Shown here: piece by piece, positions 6,663 to 58,370 of the stretch
Layout: every line of letters starts with the position of its first letter
Position numbering within the stretch: position 1 is the stretch's first letter
Assembly (NCBI RefSeq): GCF_040183065.1
Contig: NC_091132.1
Coordinates: 160,539,602-160,603,601 of the forward strand
Length of the DNA: 64,000 bases
Direction: 5' to 3'
Source of the DNA: Periplaneta americana
Taxonomy: Eukaryota; Arthropoda; Insecta; Blattodea; Blattidae
Made by a program: the position numbers and the translations under genes
The notes under the pieces: generated by a model
The model's input: only the letters and a program-made list of their open reading frames with translations
What the model was told of the DNA's origin: nothing
The model's database searches: none

Positions 6663-7464
6663 TCACTGGTCTAAATGTAAATACATATGCCTTATTAGCC
6701 TATTCTTGCACGAGAAACATTTCCCACAAATATCACATTTGAAAGGCCCTTCGGCTGTGTGTAGGAGTTTATGTCTTCTTAGACTTCTCAATTCCACATA
6801 ATACTTTCCACATTCATTACATTTAAATGACGGTCTCTCGCCCGTGTGTAGGCGGCAGTGAGTTTTGAGGTTACTCGATTCTGCGAAACACTTTCCACAG
6901 ACATCGCACTTAAACGGCCTTTCCCCGGTGTGAATGCGTGCATGTCTATTTAAAACTGCCTTTAATGAGAAACACATTCCACATACGTCGCATTTAAATG
7001 GTCTTTCACCCGTGTGTAGGCGGGAATGAATCCTGAGATAACCAGATACCGGGAAAAACTTTCCACAGACATTGCATTTGAAAGGTCTTTCACCTGTGTG
7101 TTTGCGTGCATGTCTGTTTAAAACTGCCGAATCTGAGAAACTCTTACCACACACCTCGCATTTGAATGGACTCTCTTCTGTGTGCATGCGTGTATGTACC
7201 TTCAAATTCCATGATCTTGTGAAAGACTTCCCACAGACATTGCATTTGAATAACTTTTTGTTTGTATGTAAGGGGAAGTGAAGTTTCAGAGATTCCGGTG
7301 TTGCAAAAATCTCGTTGCATATAGTACACTTGGTAGGATTATAGCTTATGTCACTAATATTTGAATAGTCAGCTCTGTTGCTACCACACTGTGTCAATTT
7401 GCCTTCTTCATGATCAGTGCCGTTATGTTCTTGTGACACATTCTTCTCAACATCATCCACAATC
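6663..7464 (-). CDS. Zinc-finger gene A, terminal exon (8 C2H2 fingers)
   Basis: Last coding exon of a nuclear C2H2 zinc-finger protein, presumably a sequence-specific DNA-binding regulator. The acceptor is a pyrimidine-rich tract ending TTTCAG before 7464. The first base completes an AGG codon from the exon at 12903-12985, giving ..EILPD-R-IVDDVEKN. The exon supplies 266 of about 371 residues and ends in TGA at 6663-6665. After an acidic leader, eight fingers run from about residue 151 to the end (CTIC, CNVC, CEVC, CNVC, CDVC, CDVC, CNEC, CDIC), joined mostly by TGERPFKC linkers. One linker has an extra Ser (GERPSFKC), and the first and last fingers are more divergent. No KRAB, ZAD or BTB domain is visible. 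Target and function are unknown. The paralogue is gene B at 37484-46466. Confidence 0.92.
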
Positions 7465-7829: not shown

Positions 7830-8721
7830 CAGCTGAAAGGAGTAATGGAACGGAGAAAAATTCTCTCTGGCACCGGGATTTGAACCCGGGTTTTCAGCTC
7901 TACTTGCTGATGCTTTATCCACCACTAAGCCACACCGGATACAACCCCAGCGCCAAATAGAATCATCTCAGATTAAGCTCCAACTCTTGGGTTCCCTCTA
8001 GTGGCCGCCCTCTGCATTACGTCATAGATGTCTATGAACGTAGGATCGAAGTCCACACATGTGCTGAGGTGCACTCGTTATGAGTGACTAGTTGGCCGGG
8101 ATCCGACGGAATAAGCGCTGTCTTAAATCACGAAGTGATTTACGCATATCATATATATTATTTTAATGTACCGAAGTACATATGATATTTCCATGCAGAT
8201 ATTCGGCGCCAGGGTTGTATCCGGTGAGGCTTAGTGGTGGATAAAGCATCAGCACGTAGAGCTGAAAACCCGGGTTCAAATCCCGGCGCCGGAGAGAATT
8301 TTTCTCCGTTCCATTACTCTTTCATCGTATGATGACGCAGAATATCTGCATGGAAATATCATATGTACTTCGGTACATTAAAATAATATATATGATATGC
8401 GTAAATCACTTCGTGATTTAAGACGGCGCTTATTCCGTCGGATCCCGGCCAACTAGTCACTCATAATGAGTGCACCTCAGCACATGTGTGGACTTCGGTC
8501 CTACATTCATAGACATCTATGACGTAATGCAGAGGGCGGCCACTAGAGGGAACCCAAGAGTTGGGGCTTAATCTGAGACAATTCTATTTGGCGCCTGGGT
8601 TGTATCCGGTGTGGCTTAGTGGTGGACAAAGCATCAGCACATAGAGCTGAAAACCCGGGTTCAAATCCCGGCGCCGGAGAGAATTTTTCTCCATTCCATT
8701 ACTCTTTCATCAGCTGAAAGG
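7830..8721. mobile_element. Palindromic composite element with outward-facing tRNA-like ends (family P1)
   Basis: An 870-bp unit (7841-8710) lies between 11-bp direct repeats CAGCTGAAAGG (7830-7840 and 8711-8721), so it appears to be one insertion. The left arm (7841 to about 8200) is the reverse complement of the right arm (about 8335-8710). Each arm ends in a tRNA-like sequence with a B-box (GGGTTCAAATCCCGG), so the two heads point outwards. A third, direct copy of the head occupies the centre (about 8206-8332). The arms contain small perfect palindromes (AAATCACGAAGTGATTT, ATGTACCGAAGTACAT) and the CACTCA/TGAGTG core. It sits in the last intron of gene A. Confidence 0.85.
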
Positions 8722-20384: not shown

Positions 20385-20690
20385 ATTCTTTGCCCAACGG
20401 TGCACATACTGTGGAATCCCGGCCACCAAGTCACTCAATTGAGTGCACTCCTTGTATAATGGCAGTTGACTTAATATAATATGTCAACATATATGTCCAA
20501 CATGGAGTAAGGCCACAAAGGGGAAAACACTGGAGGAGAAGGTTCGATCCGGAGCTGTGAATTGAACTTGGGCGTAGCTCTGTGGTTAGAGCGCTTGGTA
20601 CGTAGAATCAAGAACCCGTGTTCGACCCCAGGAGGCGGAGCGAATTTTTCTCTTTTAATAACAATTGCTACCATAACAGATTCTGTAGCA
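20385..20690 (+). mobile_element. tRNA-containing SINE-like element, family P2
   Basis: In plus sense it carries the core CACTCAATTGAGTG (20432-20445, a perfect palindrome), then about 130 bp further a tRNA-like head (GGGCGTAGCTCTGTGGTTAG at about 20571 and B-box near 20620), then a tail ending AACAGATTCTGTA. Two tandem copies in the opposite orientation are at 54640-55320. Confidence 0.8.
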
Positions 20691-20998
20691 TCAAAAATTA
20701 AACTTTACGTATACAAACACAGAAGTTTGCGGCCAGGTTACCAAATGGGATCATTCAGAATGATTCACATAAACACTGACATTAATATTACCATTAGACA
20801 TTAACGTGAAAATTTGGAAACTCCAAACTTTCATGTTTATGCTTACGTGATTTGTAAACAATACACAATCGTGGAGCGCTAAATATGACGAAATGATGTC
20901 GTTGTTATGTTTCCATAGTTACCAATTATCTTTGCGGTTATGTTTATGTTCCCATCGTGAATGATTGTTTGCCGTTTTGATTTTAAGGTAACATTTAG
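20691..20998. mobile_element. MITE family M1, damaged copy
   Basis: Same orientation as the copy at 5305-5680 (shares AAACACAGAAGTTTGCG and CGTGGAGCGCT) but lacks the left TIR and has a deletion near its right side, where the next copy begins. Confidence 0.8.
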
Positions 20999-21376
20999 GG
21001 CTCATTGACAATGAAAAAAAACATAACGTAAGCGTTAACTTAAGAATATAAACGTTACGGTAAAATCAAGAAGTCATACCATCATTCACCATGAGGACAT
21101 AAACATAACAGCAAACATACTTGGTAACCATGGAAACATAACGACGCCATTTCCTCATATTCTGTCATATACTTCACGCTCCACGATTGTGTTCTGTTTG
21201 CCAATCACGTAAACATAAGCATGAAAGTTTGGAGTTTGCAAACTTTCATGTCAACGTCTTACGGTAATGTTAATGCCAGTGTTTATGTGAATCATTGTTA
21301 ATGATCCCATTTGGTAGCCTGGCCGCAAACTTGTGTTTATGTTACGGTTATGTTTAATTTTCATTATTAATGGGCC
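20999..21376. mobile_element. MITE family M1, inverted copy with TAG duplication
   Basis: 378 bp, opposite orientation to its neighbour. Ends GGCTCATTGACAATGAAAA and (reversed) GGCCCATTAATAATGAAAA. TAG flanks at 20996-20998 and 21377-21379. Confidence 0.82.
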
Positions 21377-26176: not shown

Positions 26177-27896
26177 CAGAGTGTAACAAAAGTTTCTGGT
26201 ACAGTTTGTTAAAATTATTCTCTTGTTTAGTTCCCATTTTCTCAGGAATGATGACCAAATTTTATGATGCTGGAGTTGTTACTACTTGATTGTGGTGTGA
26301 TCCAATTCTTTATTAATAATTTGGAGGGAAATGTCACATTGTTGAAGACAGGTGTTCAATATATTAACAGTGTGAGTTAATTTGTAGTAAAATTAGGCAG
26401 TGTAAATTACGAGGTCAAAAATTTTTCCTGTGATTTGTGATTTTAATTCTGGTGAGTATTGTTTTATATTATTTAATCAATAAATTATCGTGTAGTATGA
26501 TTGAAATTAAGTGTCATCTTCTTTCAATATTAATTATTCGAACACAAAAATGTAACAAAAGTTTCTGGTACGTACCAGGAATTATTGTTACATCTTTAGT
26601 TTTCTATACTTTTCGGATAATAAACCAGTTAAATGTAATTTTTAATGCGTAATTTTAATAAACGATACTGACACTTATTTTTAATCACTCAGGTCACCAT
26701 GGCACCAACAAAACGTGAGCATGCTCGGTCTCAGGTTCAAGCCTTGGTCAAGACTGGAAAATCAGTACGTGATATTGCCAGGTTGTTGAAAATGTCACCA
26801 ACAACAGTTTTAAAATGGAAGAATCAAACGGATGGTTCTGTTTCTGATGCTAAACGATCAGGCCGACCAAGCAAGGTGTCACCTCAAACAAAAAGAAAAA
26901 TAAGGGAGTGGGTGAAGGACAAGGTTGGTGTAGGAACTCGGGCTGCTCTAAAAGGCTGAATTTTTCGGAGTGTTACTGCTCTATAAACAAAAACATTTCA
27001 CACATGACAATCAGTAGGCATTGTCGTAGTCAGGACTGATGTCGGAGGTCTTATGTACCAAGAATCAAGCCAATGCTGAGTGAAAGGAACATATCCAATC
27101 GAATTAAATTTTGTGAAAGGTTGCTGAAAGAAGGATACACAGAGGATGCACCTGGTGCCAAAATTCTAAGGGCTCATATTCTGTTCACGGATGAGTCGCT
27201 TGTGGAACTTCACTCTATTCCGAACCGTCAAAATGCCAGAATTCGAACAGCGGATCCATCCTCTATAAAGCCTACGCAGGTACCCAAGTTTGGCGTTAAG
27301 ATTATGGTGGCCGGAGGAATCTCACATTATGGAAAGACACAACTTGTTATAGTGAATGAGAAGAAAACTGTGAATGGCGAATATTACTGTACACACATTC
27401 TCCCAGCATATTCTAAAGTTCTAAGGGATACCACTAAATTTCCAAAACAACATATTGCGTTCCTCATGCAAGATGGAGCCAGAGCCCACACAGCTAAGAG
27501 TACACTGGACACAATAAAGAATTCTGGCATCAAAGTCTGGACAGACTGGCCTGGAAATTCTCCAGATTTAAATCCCATAGAGCACCTGTGGAGCAGATTA
27601 CAAGAAAGTGTGTTTCGAACACCCAGACCAAGAAATCGCAATGAGTTGATTGCCCGAGTGTTGGAAGAGTGGGAGTCCATTAGTCAGGAAGACATTTTCA
27701 GACTCACAGATAGTTTTGGTAGACGTGTGTTGCAGTGTCTTGAAAAAAAAAAAGGATGTAATACCGACTACTGAAGAACAGTAATGAAAGGACTGTTCAC
27801 TAAGCTATAAAGTGGCGTTATTTTGTGATATTTACCACAAAAAATTAAGAAATAAAGTAAAATTTTCACTGTACCAGAAACTTTTGTTACACTCTA
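26177..27896 (+). mobile_element. Tc1-like transposon, nearly complete, inactive
   Basis: 1720 bp with TIRs of about 28 bp (AGAGTGTAACAAAAGTTTCT and onwards at both ends) and TA duplication at 26175-26176 and 27897-27898. A 20-bp internal copy of the TIR sequence lies at 26551-26570 in the leader. It encodes the transposase at 26699-27774 and landed in the target duplication of the hAT-like element to its left. Confidence 0.93.
26699..27774 (+). pseudogene. Tc1-like transposase, frameshifted
   Basis: The enzyme cuts and reinserts the element at TA sites. The first part (26699-26959, 86 aa) holds the helix-turn-helix DNA-binding region with VRDIARLLKMSPTTVLKWKN and a GRPR-like motif SGRPSKVSP, then stops. 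Between 26959 and 27073 the reading frame shifts and has a TGA. The second part (27073-27774, 233 aa) is the catalytic domain: LFTDES (first Asp), MQDGARAHTA (second Asp), NSPDLNPIEHLW (Glu). By hand count 35 residues separate the second Asp and the Glu. The catalytic triad is intact but the protein is split. Confidence 0.92.
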
Positions 27897-37483: not shown

Positions 37484-38567
37484 TCATAAGTGAACGGGAT
37501 CTAGGTTGTGTACGAGTGCATGTTTTTTCAGACTATGAGACTGCTTGAAGTTCTTGCCACATATACCACAAATGAATGGCTTCTCCCCTGTGTGTACGCG
37601 TCTATGCTTTTTTAAATCACTCGATTTCGAAAACTTCTTCCCACATGTATCACAATTGAATGCCTTTTCCCCTGTGTGTATGAGTGCATGAGTTTTAAGA
37701 CTACCAGATTGCGAAAATTTCTTTCCACATATATCACAACAAAATGGCTTCTCGCCTGAATGTACGAGTCCATGTTTTTTAAAAGAACTAGAAGCCAAAA
37801 ATGTCTTTCCACATATCCTACAACTGAATCGTTTTTCGCCTGTATGTATGCGAGCATGAGTTTTCAAATTACTCGAAGACAAAAATTTCTTTCCACAAAT
37901 TCCACAACTGAATGGCTTCTCGCCTGTATGCACGCGTGAATGCTTTTTCAAATTATTCGAAGCCAAAAACTTCTTTCCACAAATTTCACAACTGAATGCC
38001 TTCTGCCCTGTGTGTACGCGTGCATGAGATTTAATGCTACCTGATTGCGAAAATGTCTTTCCACATATATCACAACTGAATGGCCTCTCCCCTGTGTGTA
38101 CGCGTGCATGGGCTTTAAGACTTCCAGAATGCGACATTTTCTTTCCACATATACCACAACTGAATGGCTTCTCGCCTGTATGTACGCGTGCATGCTGTTT
38201 CCAATTACTCAAATTCAAAAATTTCTTTCCACATGTATCACAACTGAACGGCTTCACGTCTGAATGTATCCGTGCATGCTTTTGCAGAAGACTAGACTCA
38301 AAAAATTTCTTTCCACAAATATCACAACGGAAAGACTTCTCCCCTGTGTGCAAGAGTGCGTGTCTTTCTACATGACTGAACTGCAAACCATCCTTTCCAC
38401 TGACATCGCAAATGAATGGGATTTTGCGCGTGTGTAAAAGAGTGTGGCTTTTGAGCCTAGCCAAGTCGAAAAACCACTTTCCACAAACATTACATTTATG
38501 TGTCTTCTCGACTGTTTGCAGGCACTTATCTTCTATAAAACTCTTGTCAGGTGCTGGTACTCCAATG
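37484..38567 (-). CDS. Zinc-finger gene B, terminal exon (12 C2H2 finger units)
   Basis: Last coding exon of the paralogue of gene A. The acceptor TTCTTCACAG precedes 38567; the first base completes codon AG-C with the exon at 42173-42255, then reads IGVPAPDKSFIEDKCLQTVE. The exon gives 360 of about 465 residues. Fingers start near residue 130 (CNVCGKWFF). The second unit is degenerate (CDVSGK, the second zinc Cys is Ser). Ten regular fingers follow with HTGEKPFSC-type linkers, and the protein ends LVHNLDPVHL. Helix tips vary (SQSGSLK, LASNNLK, SKSSDLK), suggesting a long specific DNA site. Some fingers are near-duplicates, a sign of internal array growth. Presumed nuclear regulator; targets unknown. 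Confidence 0.92.
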
Positions 38568-47119: not shown

Positions 47120-47262
47120 CTGCCACTATAAACTATAAAGCTTCATTGACAGGAACACGTTTCACTTACACAGCACACTTCACTGACACGACATACTTCT
47201 TCACTTGCACAACACACTTCACTGACACAACATAATTCTTCACTGATACAACACTTCAATAA
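47120..47262. repeat. Minisatellite with CACTTCACTGACAC-type units
   Basis: Tandem degenerate units (ACACACTTCACTGACACAAC and variants, roughly 15-35 bp) overlap the end of the RT reading frame and give its repetitive C-terminus. Confidence 0.8.
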
Positions 47263-48195
47263 CAACATATAATTTACACCCTTTAAATACTGTGTATAAT
47301 TACCGTCTATTAGTAAGGTCCTAAGCCTATTTTTAAATACATTTTTGGTTGTTGGTAAAGCCTTTAGTAAGTCTGCAGGTAAAGCACTCCAGTCCCTGAT
47401 AGTACGATTGAGAAAAGAAAACTTTCCAGTGTCCGTCCTCTGCCTTCTTTCCCTCAATTTATATGAGTGGTCGTTCCTTGAAGAGTAATTTGGCGGCTGC
47501 AACCTATTTTTTATTTCTCTCCAGGCAGGCTCACTTCTGTATGTTTTGAACAGTGCGCATAATCTAATTCGCGTTCTTCTGTCCGTGAGTGTGTCCCATT
47601 TTAATGGTGAATTTTTCCGACAACACTTAAGAGCCCGTTTTTGAATATTTTCCAGTGTCTTAATATGTTCTAATCTGTAAGGATCCCAACATGCAGCACC
47701 ATATTCAATTACTGGACGTACTAGTGATTTATATGCAATCTCTTTGGATTTATCAGAACCTTTTCTTAGTACCCTCATCACAAAGTGTAACGCTCTCCAT
47801 GCTTTTCCCGCTGTGCCTGTAACGTGTTCCCCCCAGCCGAGATCGCTGCTAAATGTTATTTCGAGGTATTTACATTTGTTAACTTCCGGAATGGTTTCAC
47901 CCCCTAACGTATACGATGCGTCTATTTTATTTCTTTTCCTTGTAAAGCTGATGGCTTTGCTCTTTAGAGAATTTATTTTCATTTTGTTGGCTATTGCCCA
48001 ATCGTTTATTTTATTGAGGTCATTCTGGAGAAGAGTAGTATCTTCATGGCTTTTTATTTCCCTGTATACCATACAATCATCCGCGAATAAGCGAACCCTA
48101 GACAAGATATTAACTGGCAGATCATTTACAAAAGCCAAGAATAGAAGAGGCCCCAAGACACTCCCCTGCGGGACCCCGGAAGTAATTTCAATTGC
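47143..48195 (-). CDS. Reverse transcriptase C-terminal part, open for about 350 codons
   Basis: Copies element RNA into DNA at the target site. It reads TSGVPQGSVLGPLLFLAFVN (RT block with PQGS) at the 5' cut, then VRLFADDCMV (catalytic F-ADD), NKMKINSLKSKAISFTRKRN, NKCKYLEITFSSDLGWGEHV, RPVIEYGAACWDP, and a C-terminal ..TIRDWSALPADLL. No stop from 48195 to 47143, so a recent insertion. The last about 40 residues are Cys/Ser-rich (CCVSEVCCASEE-like) because the frame runs through a minisatellite. Not a host gene; no start codon of its own. Confidence 0.9.
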   Translation of the reverse strand, partial: AIEITSGVPQGSVLGPLLFLAFVNDLPVNILSRVRLFADDCMVYREIKSHEDTTLLQNDLNKINDWAIANKMKINSLKSKAISFTRKRNKIDASYTLGGETIPEVNKCKYLEITFSSDLGWGEHVTGTAGKAWRALHFVMRVLRKGSDKSKEIAYKSLVRPVIEYGAACWDPYRLEHIKTLENIQKRALKCCRKNSPLKWDTLTDRRTRIRLCALFKTYRSEPAWREIKNRLQPPNYSSRNDHSYKLRERRQRTDTGKFSFLNRTIRDWSALPADLLKALPTTKNVFKNRLRTLLIDGNYTQYLKGVNYMLLLKCCISEELCCVSEVCCASEEVCRVSEVCCVSETCSCQ

Positions 48196-54560: not shown

Positions 54561-54639
54561 TTAAGTGTGGTAAAAGTATTTTATAAAGGAAACATGCCTC
54601 GAAATACTATATAAATCGCATAAACAAGTTTTGTTGTTT

Positions 54640-55320
54640 ACTAAAGATTTTTTATTATTTTAATCATACAGAATAATATCTGTTATGGTAACAATTAATA
54701 TTTGAGGAGAAAACTTCTCTCCAGCGCTGGGGATCAAACCCGGGTCCTTGGTACTATGTACCAAGCTCTCTCGCCATTGAGCTATGCCGAAGTCCAATCC
54801 ACAGCACCGGATTGAACTCCACTCCTCCAGTGTTGTTTTCCTTAGTGCTTAGTGGCCTGACTCCAAGTTGGGCATATGTGATGACATATATATTCAAGTC
54901 AACTGCCATTGTACAAGGAGCGCACTCAGCTGAGTGACTAATGGCCGGGATTCCACAGTAAAGTGCACAGTAATCTGTACAGAAATATGCACTGTAGCTA
55001 GATGAATTTACTAAATTTTTTTTATTATTTTAATCCTACAGAATAATATCTGTTATGGTAACAATTAATATTTGAGGAGAAAACTTCGCTCTGGTGCTGG
55101 GGATCGAACCGGGGTCCTTGGTTCTACGTACCAAGCACTCTCACCATTGAGCTATGCCGAAGTCCAATCCACAGCACCGGATCGAACTCCCCTCCTCCAG
55201 TGCTGTTTCCCTTAGTGGCCTGATTCCAAGTTGGGCATATGTGATAATGTATATATTCAAGTCAACTGCCATTGTACAAGGAGCGCATTCAGCTGTTTGT
55301 TTACAAACACATAATTCCAA
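54640..55320 (-). mobile_element. Two tandem copies of tRNA-containing SINE-like family P2
   Basis: Direct repeats with a period of about 371 bp. Each starts (plus strand) TTATTTTAATC then ACAGAATAATATCTGTTATGG, followed by the reverse tRNA-like head (TGGCGAGAGAGCTTGGTAC on minus; B-box near 54735 and 55105) and the palindromic core CACTCAGCTGAGTG (54923-54936). The second copy is cut in its core by the start of the Penelope-like element near 55300. Confidence 0.85.
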
Positions 55321-55325
55321 GCAAC

Positions 55326-56832
55326 ATGAAACAAGTAAAACCAATCAAACCAGAAGCACCTAAACTAAACGCACTACCGAAAATACATAAAGAGAACATA
55401 CCCCTCAGACTATTAGTCAATCATCGAAATACACCAACACACAAACTAGCCACATACATGGACAAAGCCATAAGGAACAACATAAAATTCGAAAAACAAA
55501 CAACAATAAAAAAACAACATAGACCTAGTGAATAAAATAAAAGACAAACCTATCCCACACAGTACAACATTAGCGACTTTCGACATAACTAACCTATACA
55601 CAAACATACTCATAAAAGATACACTACAGATACTAGAACAAATGCTCAAAAACAACAACACACAACAAGAACACATTAAAGAAATCATCCACACTACAGA
55701 CATCATCACAAAACAAAACTACTTCACATACAATAACAAATATTACACTCAAACCGAAGGCCTACCCATGGGATCACCCATTTCCAGCATACTAGCAGAA
55801 ATATTCTTACACACACAGAACAGACATACATACTAAACAAAGACAACAACAAACACACAGACAACATCATATATTGGCACAGATACGTAGATGACATACT
55901 AATACTATACAAAGGAAACAAAAGACAGATCCAAAACCTGCATCAACACACAAACAAAATACACACAAAGCTACACTACACATTAGAAATTGAAAACAAC
56001 AAATCCATAAATTTTCTAGACATCACAATAACAAAAGTAGACAAGAAACATACATTCAAAGTATAAACAACAACAACAGCAACAACCACCTGCATTCCGA
56101 ACAATGGTACACAGACTACTCAACATACCAATGAACCAACAGGATTACAACGAAGAGCTAAACACAATCAAATACATATCACAAGAAAACAGATACAACC
56201 CTAACATAATAGAGAACATAATATGTAAGACAAAACATAATTACAAAAAACGTAAGAAAACAACATAAGCACAACAACACAAAAAAATACATCACAATAA
56301 CATACAAAAACAAAACCACACACAAAATTGCAACCTCATTCAAGAAATTAAATTACAACATCGCATACGGAACAAATAACACTCAACACACAAACAACAC
56401 ACAAAAAAAAACAAATACAACCACACAGGCGTATACAAACTCAAATATAACACCTGCAACAACTTCTACATAGAACAGACAGGCAGATCATTTCAAACAC
56501 ATTACAAAGAACACGTCACAACCATAACAAAATTACAAAACACCTTCACATATGCAGAACACATCACAAATGCTAACCACACCTACAGAGACATCAACAC
56601 AGACATGGAAATACTACACATCCAACCAAAAAGCCAGAAACTAAACACACTAGAACAATATGAAATATACAGACACACAAAAACACACCCCAATGAAATT
56701 CTCAACACACAACTCAATTTCAGACCACACACATTCTTTGACTCCACACTACACCACACAAACACACCCTCTCAGGAAACAAAACAAGAGGCGCCAAGAC
56801 CAACAACGACCAATTCTAAGAATGACCCATAA
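55326..56832 (+). pseudogene. Penelope-like element: reverse transcriptase plus GIY-YIG endonuclease, decayed
   Basis: In order: KPEAPKLNALPKIHKENIPL (RT start), TTLATFDITNLYTNILIKDT (D-x-x-N-L-Y block), TEGLPMGSPISSILAEIF, then after a shift YWHRYVDDILILYKG (catalytic VDD near 55885), INFLDITITK, and near 56430 GVYKLKYNTCNNFYIEQTGR SFQ, the GIY-YIG endonuclease with YIE in place of YIG. The C-terminal part is open to the stop at 56830-56832. RT followed by GIY-YIG is diagnostic for this class. 5'-truncated, several shifts and stops. A-rich codon use. Confidence 0.92.
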
Positions 56833-57297: not shown

Positions 57298-57349
57298 TTT
57301 ACTTCTTAACAAGGTTAGAAAATATTTTACAATTCATTTTTAATTTTCA

Positions 57350-57821
57350 GAGAAGTCTGTATTGTATCTTAAAAGTATTTATTTCAGTCACTGACTTCAC
57401 AGCATATGTTTAAGGTGCTACACCTTTACATTACATGTTTAAAGGACGTATGAACGTTTTCGTTGGAATACGCTAACATCATCAGAAACGGAGTACATTT
57501 CAGCAATATCAGTGCTCTCTACATAATCTCTACAAATACAAAACATATTTAGTGGCATGCAAAATGAGACATATTAAAAACTAACATTGCTGTGATACAC
57601 ATTGACATTCTTATATGACTGTCTTGATTGTCACTTACTTAAAATACACGTATAGATTACAAAATATATATGATTGCAAGTCTTCACATATGAGATAATA
57701 AAATGACATGATGTAAAAGTGATAAAAATAATAAAATATAAAACTAAGATAAAAAGTATTATGAATGTGAAGAGTTACAAAATTACAGTAATTGCATTTA
57801 TTATATTCCTATTTCTGTTTC

Positions 57822-57915
<94 letters not shown>

Positions 57916-58370
57916 TTCCACCATTCAGAAATGTATGCATCATGGTTTGTGTCACGTAATTATTTGAATATTTTTCAAATTTATATGGTTTTATTATAAA
58001 TGCCAATATATTATACGTTGGGTTGTTTGATGTTGATTAATAATTAATATTTTGTAATCTATACGTGTATTTAAGTAAGTGACAATCAAGACAGTCATAT
58101 AAGAATGTCAATGTGTATCACAGCAATGTTGGTTTTTAATATGTCTCATTTTGCATGCCACTAAATATGTTTTGTATTTGTAGAGATTATGTAGAGAGCA
58201 CTGATATTGCTGAAATGTACTTCGTTTCTGATGATGTTGGCGTAGACCAACGAAAACGTTCATGCGTCCTTTAAACATGTACCGGTAATGTAAAGGTGTA
58301 GCACCTTAAACATAAGCTGTGAAGTCAGTGACTGAAATAAATACTTTTAAGGTTAGAAAACTTTGACATC
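57350..58370. repeat. Long inverted repeat (arms about 310 bp) around an (AT)n tract
   Basis: The left arm (about 57360-57670) and right arm (about 58045-58360) are inverted copies, about 95% alike. Shared blocks include CAGTCACTGACTTCACAGC, GTGTAGCACC (reversed) and CACGTATAGATTAC. The spacer is about 375 bp. The right arm carries CTGATGA (58228-58234), stem GTTGG/CCAAC and GAAA (58252-58255), a hammerhead-like core as at 19963-20125. It lies about 500 bp downstream of the Penelope-like ORF and may be its terminal repeat (inference). Confidence 0.85.
57828..57911. repeat. (AT)n microsatellite
   Basis: About 40 AT units in the loop of the inverted repeat, itself able to fold on itself. Confidence 0.95.

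What the first reader, a model, noticed from the sequence alone, without database searches (positions are those of the whole stretch)
7830..8721. Palindromic element with outward-facing tRNA-like ends and an 11-bp target duplication
Seen: arms of about 360 bp are inverted copies, each ending in a tRNA-like sequence transcribed outwards, with a third head in the centre and CAGCTGAAAGG on both sides. A target duplication around the entire palindrome means it moved as one unit rather than by two SINE insertions. Ordinary SINEs have one 5' head; LINE twin priming inverts but does not duplicate sequence. This could be an undescribed class of tRNA-ended inverted-repeat element.
Basis: partly seen in the sequence, partly recalled or inferred. 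Interest (0 to 1): 0.8.

Follow-up and report, generated by a model that had tools for sequence, protein, structure and literature searches.

The report
tRNA-bearing mirror-image Penelope-type retroelement
The mirror-image repeat is one copy of a common jumping element whose small tRNA-containing RNA appears to be copied into both sides of a DNA break at once, in the manner of Penelope retrotransposons, so the mirror image is made anew at each insertion instead of being a new palindromic element.

Summary
In detail: window 7841-8710 is an inverted repeat with three tRNA(Tyr)-like folds and an 11-bp target duplication. It is one of many copies: of 50 genome loci read, 41 have the same head-to-head layout. 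But the palindrome does not travel as a unit. Both arms are runs of one 382-nt unit, and the central joint differs in all 33 loci tabulated. Constant are two outer ends: one arm stops at point A, the other at point B about 65 nt further (37 of 41; the window copy is A/A). Target duplications (29 of 50; controls 29 of 2,450) and empty paralogous sites show one insertion event. Many variants are shared by all units of both arms, so the arms usually come from one RNA sequence, perhaps a 382-nt circle. Three Penelope-like insertions (PLEs) readable at both ends in this genome have the same anatomy, and a published PLE enzyme cleaves and extends both strands from two internal start sites. Best reading: a non-coding, PLE-mobilised, retrozyme-like element carrying a tRNA fold and no detectable hammerhead. 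PLE partnership and RNA circle are inferred. The 'new inverted-repeat element' is not supported; a new variant of a known kind is.

The parts
7830..7840 (.). left target duplication CAGCTGAAAGG
7841..8211 (-). left arm: about one 382-nt unit read on the minus strand, outer (3') end at point A, inner (5') end at about u8
7865..7939 (-). tRNA-like fold (Tyr, GTA by ARAGORN), left arm
8200..8211 (.). central joint; 12 nt fit both arms
8200..8710 (+). right arm: about 1.3 units, inner (5') end at about u260, outer (3') end at point A
8220..8294 (+). tRNA-like fold (GTA), inner copy of the right arm
8326..8711 (+). one reference unit u1-u386 of this copy (family period 382)
8605..8679 (+). tRNA-like fold (ATA in this copy), outer copy of the right arm
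8711..8721 (.). right target duplication CAGCTGAAAGG

Best explanation
A non-coding retroelement that integrates in the Penelope manner. A 382-nt RNA unit with a full tRNA-like fold serves as template, most likely as a circle that the reverse transcriptase can run round several times. The enzyme of a resident Penelope-like element makes a staggered cut of roughly 10-13 bp. Both target strands then prime reverse transcription on this RNA, one at point A (in the predicted loop of the hairpin UCAUC-GUAU-GAUGA), the other at point B about 65 nt downstream. The two cDNAs end at variable points and are joined, often through a few matching bases. Result: two tandem arms head to head, 3' ends outward, inside one target duplication. 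Shown here: anatomy, two fixed outer ends, variable joint, target duplications, empty sites, shared template sequence of both arms in most loci, same anatomy in PLEs of the same genome. Inferred: that a PLE enzyme does it, that the RNA is circular, and any role of the tRNA fold.
For: 41 of 50 loci bilateral, 37 of these A/B, 2 A/A, none B/B, 1 cut by the fetched stretch, 1 interrupted by inserts. Second sample drawn with a body-only query: 8 of 10 bilateral. Target duplication 29 of 50 against 29 of 2,450 controls. Empty paralogous sites with the target once: clear for L015, L019, L032, L033, L076. 33 of 33 tabulated pairs of inner ends differ. 105 variants lie in every unit of both arms in 25 loci, 10 of them seen in at most 2 of 40 loci; a unit's nearest relative is in its own locus for 38 of 73 units, shuffled mean 1.9, maximum 12. 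PLEs: 3 of 3 insertions that I could read at both ends are head to head, one arm at the near and one at the far end point, exact duplications of 12, 12 and 11 nt. Published PLE protein cleaves and extends both strands and starts at two internal sites (PMC11167929); Adineta PLEs carry an inverted pLTR, a tail on one of the inverted pLTRs and 8-10 bp duplications (PMC3846280).
Against: No RNA or enzyme was tested. No DNA match between unit and PLE stretches, and 3' tails are not convincingly alike (best of 16 tests 19 of 1,000 shuffles). Two joints of a tRNA-type arm with a PLE arm (L029; window 54637-56832) lack a target duplication. For 35 of 73 units the nearest relative lies in another locus; 9 variants fill one arm only and 41 are otherwise intermediate. 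In L043 the right-arm units lack a stretch that the left arm has, and L029 and L044 mix haplotypes, so some loci used more than one template. Gene conversion between arms could mimic a shared template. Samples were ranked by similarity, so old copies are under-represented.
Confidence: 0.7

Rival explanations
1. Same two-sided priming, but the template is linear: a multimer transcribed from a homogeneous tandem array, or monomers joined by template jumping of the reverse transcriptase.
For: PLEs are described as tandem with multimeric RNA (PMC11167929); some loci mix haplotypes; 53 variants have intermediate occupancy at coverage 3 or more.
Confidence: 0.25
2. Twin priming by a LINE on tandem or dimeric SINE RNA.
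For: Twin priming inverts part of an insertion, and on a tandem template inversion could look like duplication (recalled).
Against: The outer end of the second arm would be arbitrary; here it is fixed (37 of 41 A/B). No poly(A) or simple tail is seen at one particular end (sequences).
Confidence: 0.04
3. A DNA element with terminal inverted repeats (MITE or foldback) that moves as a palindrome.
For: Inverted arms with a flanking duplication in 41 of 50 bilateral loci, 29 of 50 with duplication.
Against: No two of 33 loci share the inner ends; arm lengths 0.13-4.71 units; ends A and B differ.
Confidence: 0.02
4. Two independent insertions or a local inversion.
For: Either could produce a single such locus.
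Against: Same layout in 41 of 50 loci, duplications outside both arms, empty sites lacking both arms.
Confidence: 0.01

Closest known systems
Penelope-like elements (Penelope/Poseidon clade: Anolis PAc; Adineta vaga Pen families)
   Same: Tandem units, inverted 5'-truncated arm, two end points with a 'tail' on one arm, short target duplications, AT-rich targets (PMC11167929 parts 1-2; PMC3846280 passages). Same anatomy in 3 of 3 PLE insertions readable at both ends in this genome.
   Different: Unit is 382 nt without an open frame of 150 aa or more, has a tRNA-like fold and no detectable hammerhead; distance A-B about 65 nt against 41-45 nt in PLEs of this genome.
Metazoan non-LTR retrozymes
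   Same: Small (about 170-400 nt) non-coding tandem repeats with target duplications; proposed to be moved by PLEs and to pass through RNA circles (PMC7229834 and PMC7761336, passages).
   Different: No type I hammerhead found here; a tRNA-like fold instead. The word 'inverted' does not occur in the main text of PMC7229834, so head-to-head arms are not reported there.
tRNA-derived SINEs and SINE-like SMalpha of Schistosoma
   Same: Short, non-coding, abundant; tRNA-like region. SMalpha is called SINE-like and carries a hammerhead (PMC8490949, passages).
   Different: Outer ends are 3' ends of both arms; no 5' head to 3' tail order; integration signature is that of PLEs.

Membership tests
Penelope-like element (autonomous) | encodes telomerase-like RT and GIY-YIG endonuclease | tested here: not met
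   no open frame of 150 aa or more within 7830-8721; unit of 382 nt
Penelope-like element (integration signature) | inverted arm, two end points (tail), short target duplication | tested here: met
   37 of 41 bilateral loci A/B; duplication in 29 of 50 against 29 of 2,450 controls
Penelope-like element | minimal hammerhead in the pLTR region | tested here: not met
   descriptor with one mismatch: 5 of 5 PLE stretches hit, 0 hits in the unit or family 2 on either strand; with no mismatch it hit none of the 5 PLEs either
Non-LTR retrozyme | type I hammerhead ribozyme | tested here: not met
   C3 position is A in 144 of 144 unit copies covering it
Non-LTR retrozyme | accumulates as circular RNA | not testable with these tools
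   no RNA data; only indirect sequence evidence
Non-LTR retrozyme | tandem genomic repeats of about 170-400 nt with target duplications | tested here: met
   period 382, runs up to 4.71 units; duplications
tRNA-derived SINE | tRNA-like fold with Pol III boxes | tested here: met
   RF00005 45.8-55.5 bits; A and B boxes judged by eye from recalled consensus; transcription not tested
tRNA-derived SINE | one 5' head and one LINE-like or A-rich 3' tail per insertion | tested here: not met
   41 of 50 loci have two outward 3' ends
Terminal-inverted-repeat DNA element | copies share both ends and the interior as one unit | tested here: not met
   33 of 33 pairs of inner ends differ

The most novel reading that the evidence does not exclude
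A ribozyme-free, tRNA-punctuated RNA circle that is a retroelement: host tRNA processing, not a hammerhead, excises the 382-nt monomer; a Penelope enzyme copies the circle round and round from both sides of one target break, with strict use of start site A on one strand and B on the other. That would be a second route to retrozyme-like life and genomic evidence for rolling-circle reverse transcription.
Probability: 0.35. Interest if true: 0.8.

Novelty: new variant of a known kind. Interest (0 to 1): 0.6.

Why it matters
How PLEs integrate, why their copies are tandem and inverted, and what moves animal retrozymes are open; the sources read here call PLEs likely movers of retrozymes without proof (PMC7761336, passages). 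This family offers many copies in one genome (first-look candidates 6,376 for the full query and 1,781 for the body, unconfirmed), and each copy records both priming events, the joint and the template sequence. It points to paired use of two start sites and to one common template for both arms, which are testable at the bench. It also shows that a tRNA-bearing repeat, likely to be filed as a SINE, can carry a Penelope-type integration signature.

Tried and rejected
Ribozyme in the unit: none but tRNA (and weak sub-threshold look-alikes) by Rfam at E up to 5, none by a hammerhead descriptor. A stretch xTGATGA...GAAA at u4-31 looked like a remnant, but C3 is A in 144 of 144 unit copies covering it and the descriptor fails; rejected. 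Rfam alone would not decide: it also missed the PLE hammerheads.

Shared 3' tails of tRNA units and PLEs: a CAGA-loop-TCTG hairpin lies between the two end points in unit 1 (by eye), family 2, PLE1 and the window PLE at 57320, but not in three other PLE stretches; tail alignments do not beat shuffles in 15 of 16 tests at 5%, best 19 of 1,000. Left as a lead.

tRNA-type arm joined head to head to a PLE arm (L029; window 54637-56832): first taken as proof of a shared enzyme; no target duplication, so only suggestive. Of 9 single-arm loci, 1 adjoins a PLE stretch that I had in hand.

Covariation of the tRNA fold between two families (10 sequences): 3 double changes in the anticodon stem with 91.7% of cells paired; cells with double changes (12) and covariation score exceed 500 of 500 shuffles, but the number of pairs with double change (3 against 3.6) and of pair types (11 against 13.9) do not. 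May be one branch or two parent tRNAs.

Unbiased census: the pattern search did not complete. The second sample (10 loci out of 42 matches) came from a body-only query and is ranked by similarity.

Full report
Is it there? The window holds inverted arms of 375 nt, 95% complementary, three tRNA-like folds, and CAGCTGAAAGG at 7830-7840 and 8711-8721.

Where. The window lies in a 3.23-Gb genome of 91 contigs. The American cockroach assembly has 3.23 Gb, 17 chromosome-scale scaffolds and scaffold N50 188 Mb (PMC12774602, passages); the large contigs seen here are 138-229 Mb. The species is my inference. That paper gives SINEs as 3.47% of the genome, mostly with tRNA-derived promoters; this family is probably counted there (inference).

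Anatomy in the genome. A search with 7830-8721 gave 229 matches from 40 scored of 6,376 first-look candidates. I read 40 distinct loci (four duplicates dropped). They are built from one 382-nt unit (consensus of 79 near-complete units, mean identity to it 97%): a hairpin-rich body, a tRNA-like stretch (75 nt here, 72 in the consensus), then GAGAATTTTTCTCC...CTTTCAT. The RNA of window 8300-8680 folds better than all of 100 shuffles (z -5.2). Units stand in head-to-tail runs, and mostly two runs face each other, 3' ends outward. That query was itself palindromic, so I drew a second sample with a body-only query and read 10 further loci of its 42 matches: 8 of 10 are bilateral. Together 41 of 50 are bilateral, 9 single-arm. 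Both samples are ranked by similarity and favour young copies.

Fixed ends. Outer ends fall at A (u381 to u10, around the predicted loop of UCAUC-GUAU-GAUGA) or B (u61 to u77, AU-rich). Of 41 bilateral loci 37 have one of each, two (the window copy and L024) are A/A, none is B/B, one (L077) was cut by the fetched stretch, one (L017) is broken up by inserts. With 41 A and 37 B ends in the 39 classified loci, free choice would give A/B in about half.

One insertion event. Duplications of score 9 or more flank 29 of 50 loci, against 29 of 2,450 cross-paired controls (at score 8: 30 of 50 against 112). Matched lengths run from 8 to 17, mostly 12-14 nt, and can include bases of the element end. Copies of the surrounding repeats without the insertion show the target once for L015, L019, L032, L033 and L076; L036 is short and ambiguous, L078 aligns poorly, and the single-arm L039 shows at most 5 nt. 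The 12 bases outside the ends are 73-75% A+T on the A side and 79-81% on the B side, against 70-71% further out, without a clear motif.

The palindrome is made anew. In the 33 bilateral loci of the first sample no two share the pair of inner ends. Joints have 1-3 nt of filler in 5, neither filler nor overlap in 1, 1-5 nt of overlap in 22 and 8-30 nt in 5. Arms run from 0.13 to 4.71 units, mean 1.55 (66 arms). So these copies did not descend from one palindrome.

Template of the arms. Near-full units differ by 2.1% within an arm, 2.6% between arms of a locus and 4.3% between loci; the nearest relative of a unit lies in its own locus for 38 of 73 units (shuffled mean 1.9, maximum 12), and elsewhere for 35. 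At coverage 3 or more, variants occur in one unit 386 times, in all units 73 times, in between 53 times. 105 variants occur in every unit of both arms, in 25 loci; 10 of them are seen in at most 2 of 40 loci; 9 fill one arm only and 41 are otherwise intermediate. Against one template: L029 and L044 mix haplotypes, and the right-arm units of L043 lack a stretch present in its left arm. Gene conversion could add sharing, but the many single-unit variants argue that it is limited. No arm of the 33 loci contains a second reversal, although genomic runs are short. A 382-nt RNA circle copied several times round explains this most simply; that is inference, no RNA was examined.

Whose machinery? A GIY-YIG search gave 108 matches (150 of 7,667 candidates scored); 17 of the 20 loci cut out belong to one PLE family by DNA similarity. 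Its copies end at two points about 41 nt apart. Three PLE insertions could be read at both ends (L052/L053, L062/L063, L079): each is head to head, one arm at the near, the other at the far point, with exact duplications of 12, 12 and 11 nt. This is the anatomy of the tRNA family. In Anolis PAc the purified protein cleaves and extends both strands, and reverse transcription starts at two internal sites that account for the genomic tail (PMC11167929, parts 1 and 2 of 4); that paper saw no strand difference in start site, so the strict A/B pairing here is not explained by it. In Adineta, PLEs carry an inverted pLTR, a 31-bp tail on one of the inverted pLTRs and duplications of 8-10 bp (PMC3846280, passages).

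Against a proven partner: no DNA match of unit and PLE stretches, tails not convincingly alike, hybrid joints without duplication, hammerhead-like motifs in 5 of 5 PLE stretches at one mismatch but none in the unit. So it works like a PLE insertion, but by definition it is neither an autonomous PLE nor a retrozyme.

The tRNA. A second, diverged family with the same order of parts lies in this window (54637-55295 and about 20410-20680). Its anticodon stem differs by double changes at three pairs while the loop ACGTAGA is mostly kept; this hints that the fold matters, but may be one branch. My guess is that the fold marks the RNA for cutting or for the enzyme; a run of five T just behind it could end Pol III transcription (recalled rule).

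Known or new? Searches of open-licence PMC papers listed no title describing a tRNA-bearing PLE-type element; I read listings and the passages named, not all papers, and Repbase and Dfam were not available. I rate it a new variant of a known kind.

Noticed in passing
window 54637-55295 (-) and about 20410-20680 (+): Second, diverged family with the same order of parts (body motif, tRNA-like GTA fold, GAGCGAATTTTTCTCC); a tandem dimer with period about 365 and a single copy.
   Followed up: partly
window 55300-56832 (+): Broken Penelope-like RT and endonuclease frames (RVT_1 7.8e-7, just under Pfam's cut-off; PLE endonuclease similarity) that begin within about 10 nt of the inner end of the family-2 dimer, head to head.
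   Followed up: partly
window 57320-58351: PLE 3' end with hammerhead-like motif and inverted arms 57368-57667 / 58047-58351, 95% alike.
   Followed up: partly
L029:1935-3109: A tRNA-unit arm joined head to head to a 5'-truncated PLE arm, no target duplication.
   Followed up: partly
window 6663-7460 (-) and 37484-38464 (-): Arrays of C2H2 zinc fingers.
   Followed up: no
window 27073-27774 (+) and 47143-48156 (-): DDE_3 transposase fragment (3.8e-12) and another RT fragment (RVT_1 9.3e-7, just under cut-off).
   Followed up: no
window 20694-21361: Unrelated-looking inverted repeat, arms 193 nt, 84% complementary, 282 nt apart, next to the family-2 copy.
   Followed up: no
window about 8540-8556: GGCCACTAGAGGGAACC in the unit body resembles a CTCF core motif (recalled; not tested).
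   Followed up: no
L045 (G000:C85:1043112-1043339): Best GIY-YIG match (54 bits) lies in a 631-aa open frame on contig C85 and shows no DNA similarity to the other 19 loci; origin not examined.
   Followed up: no
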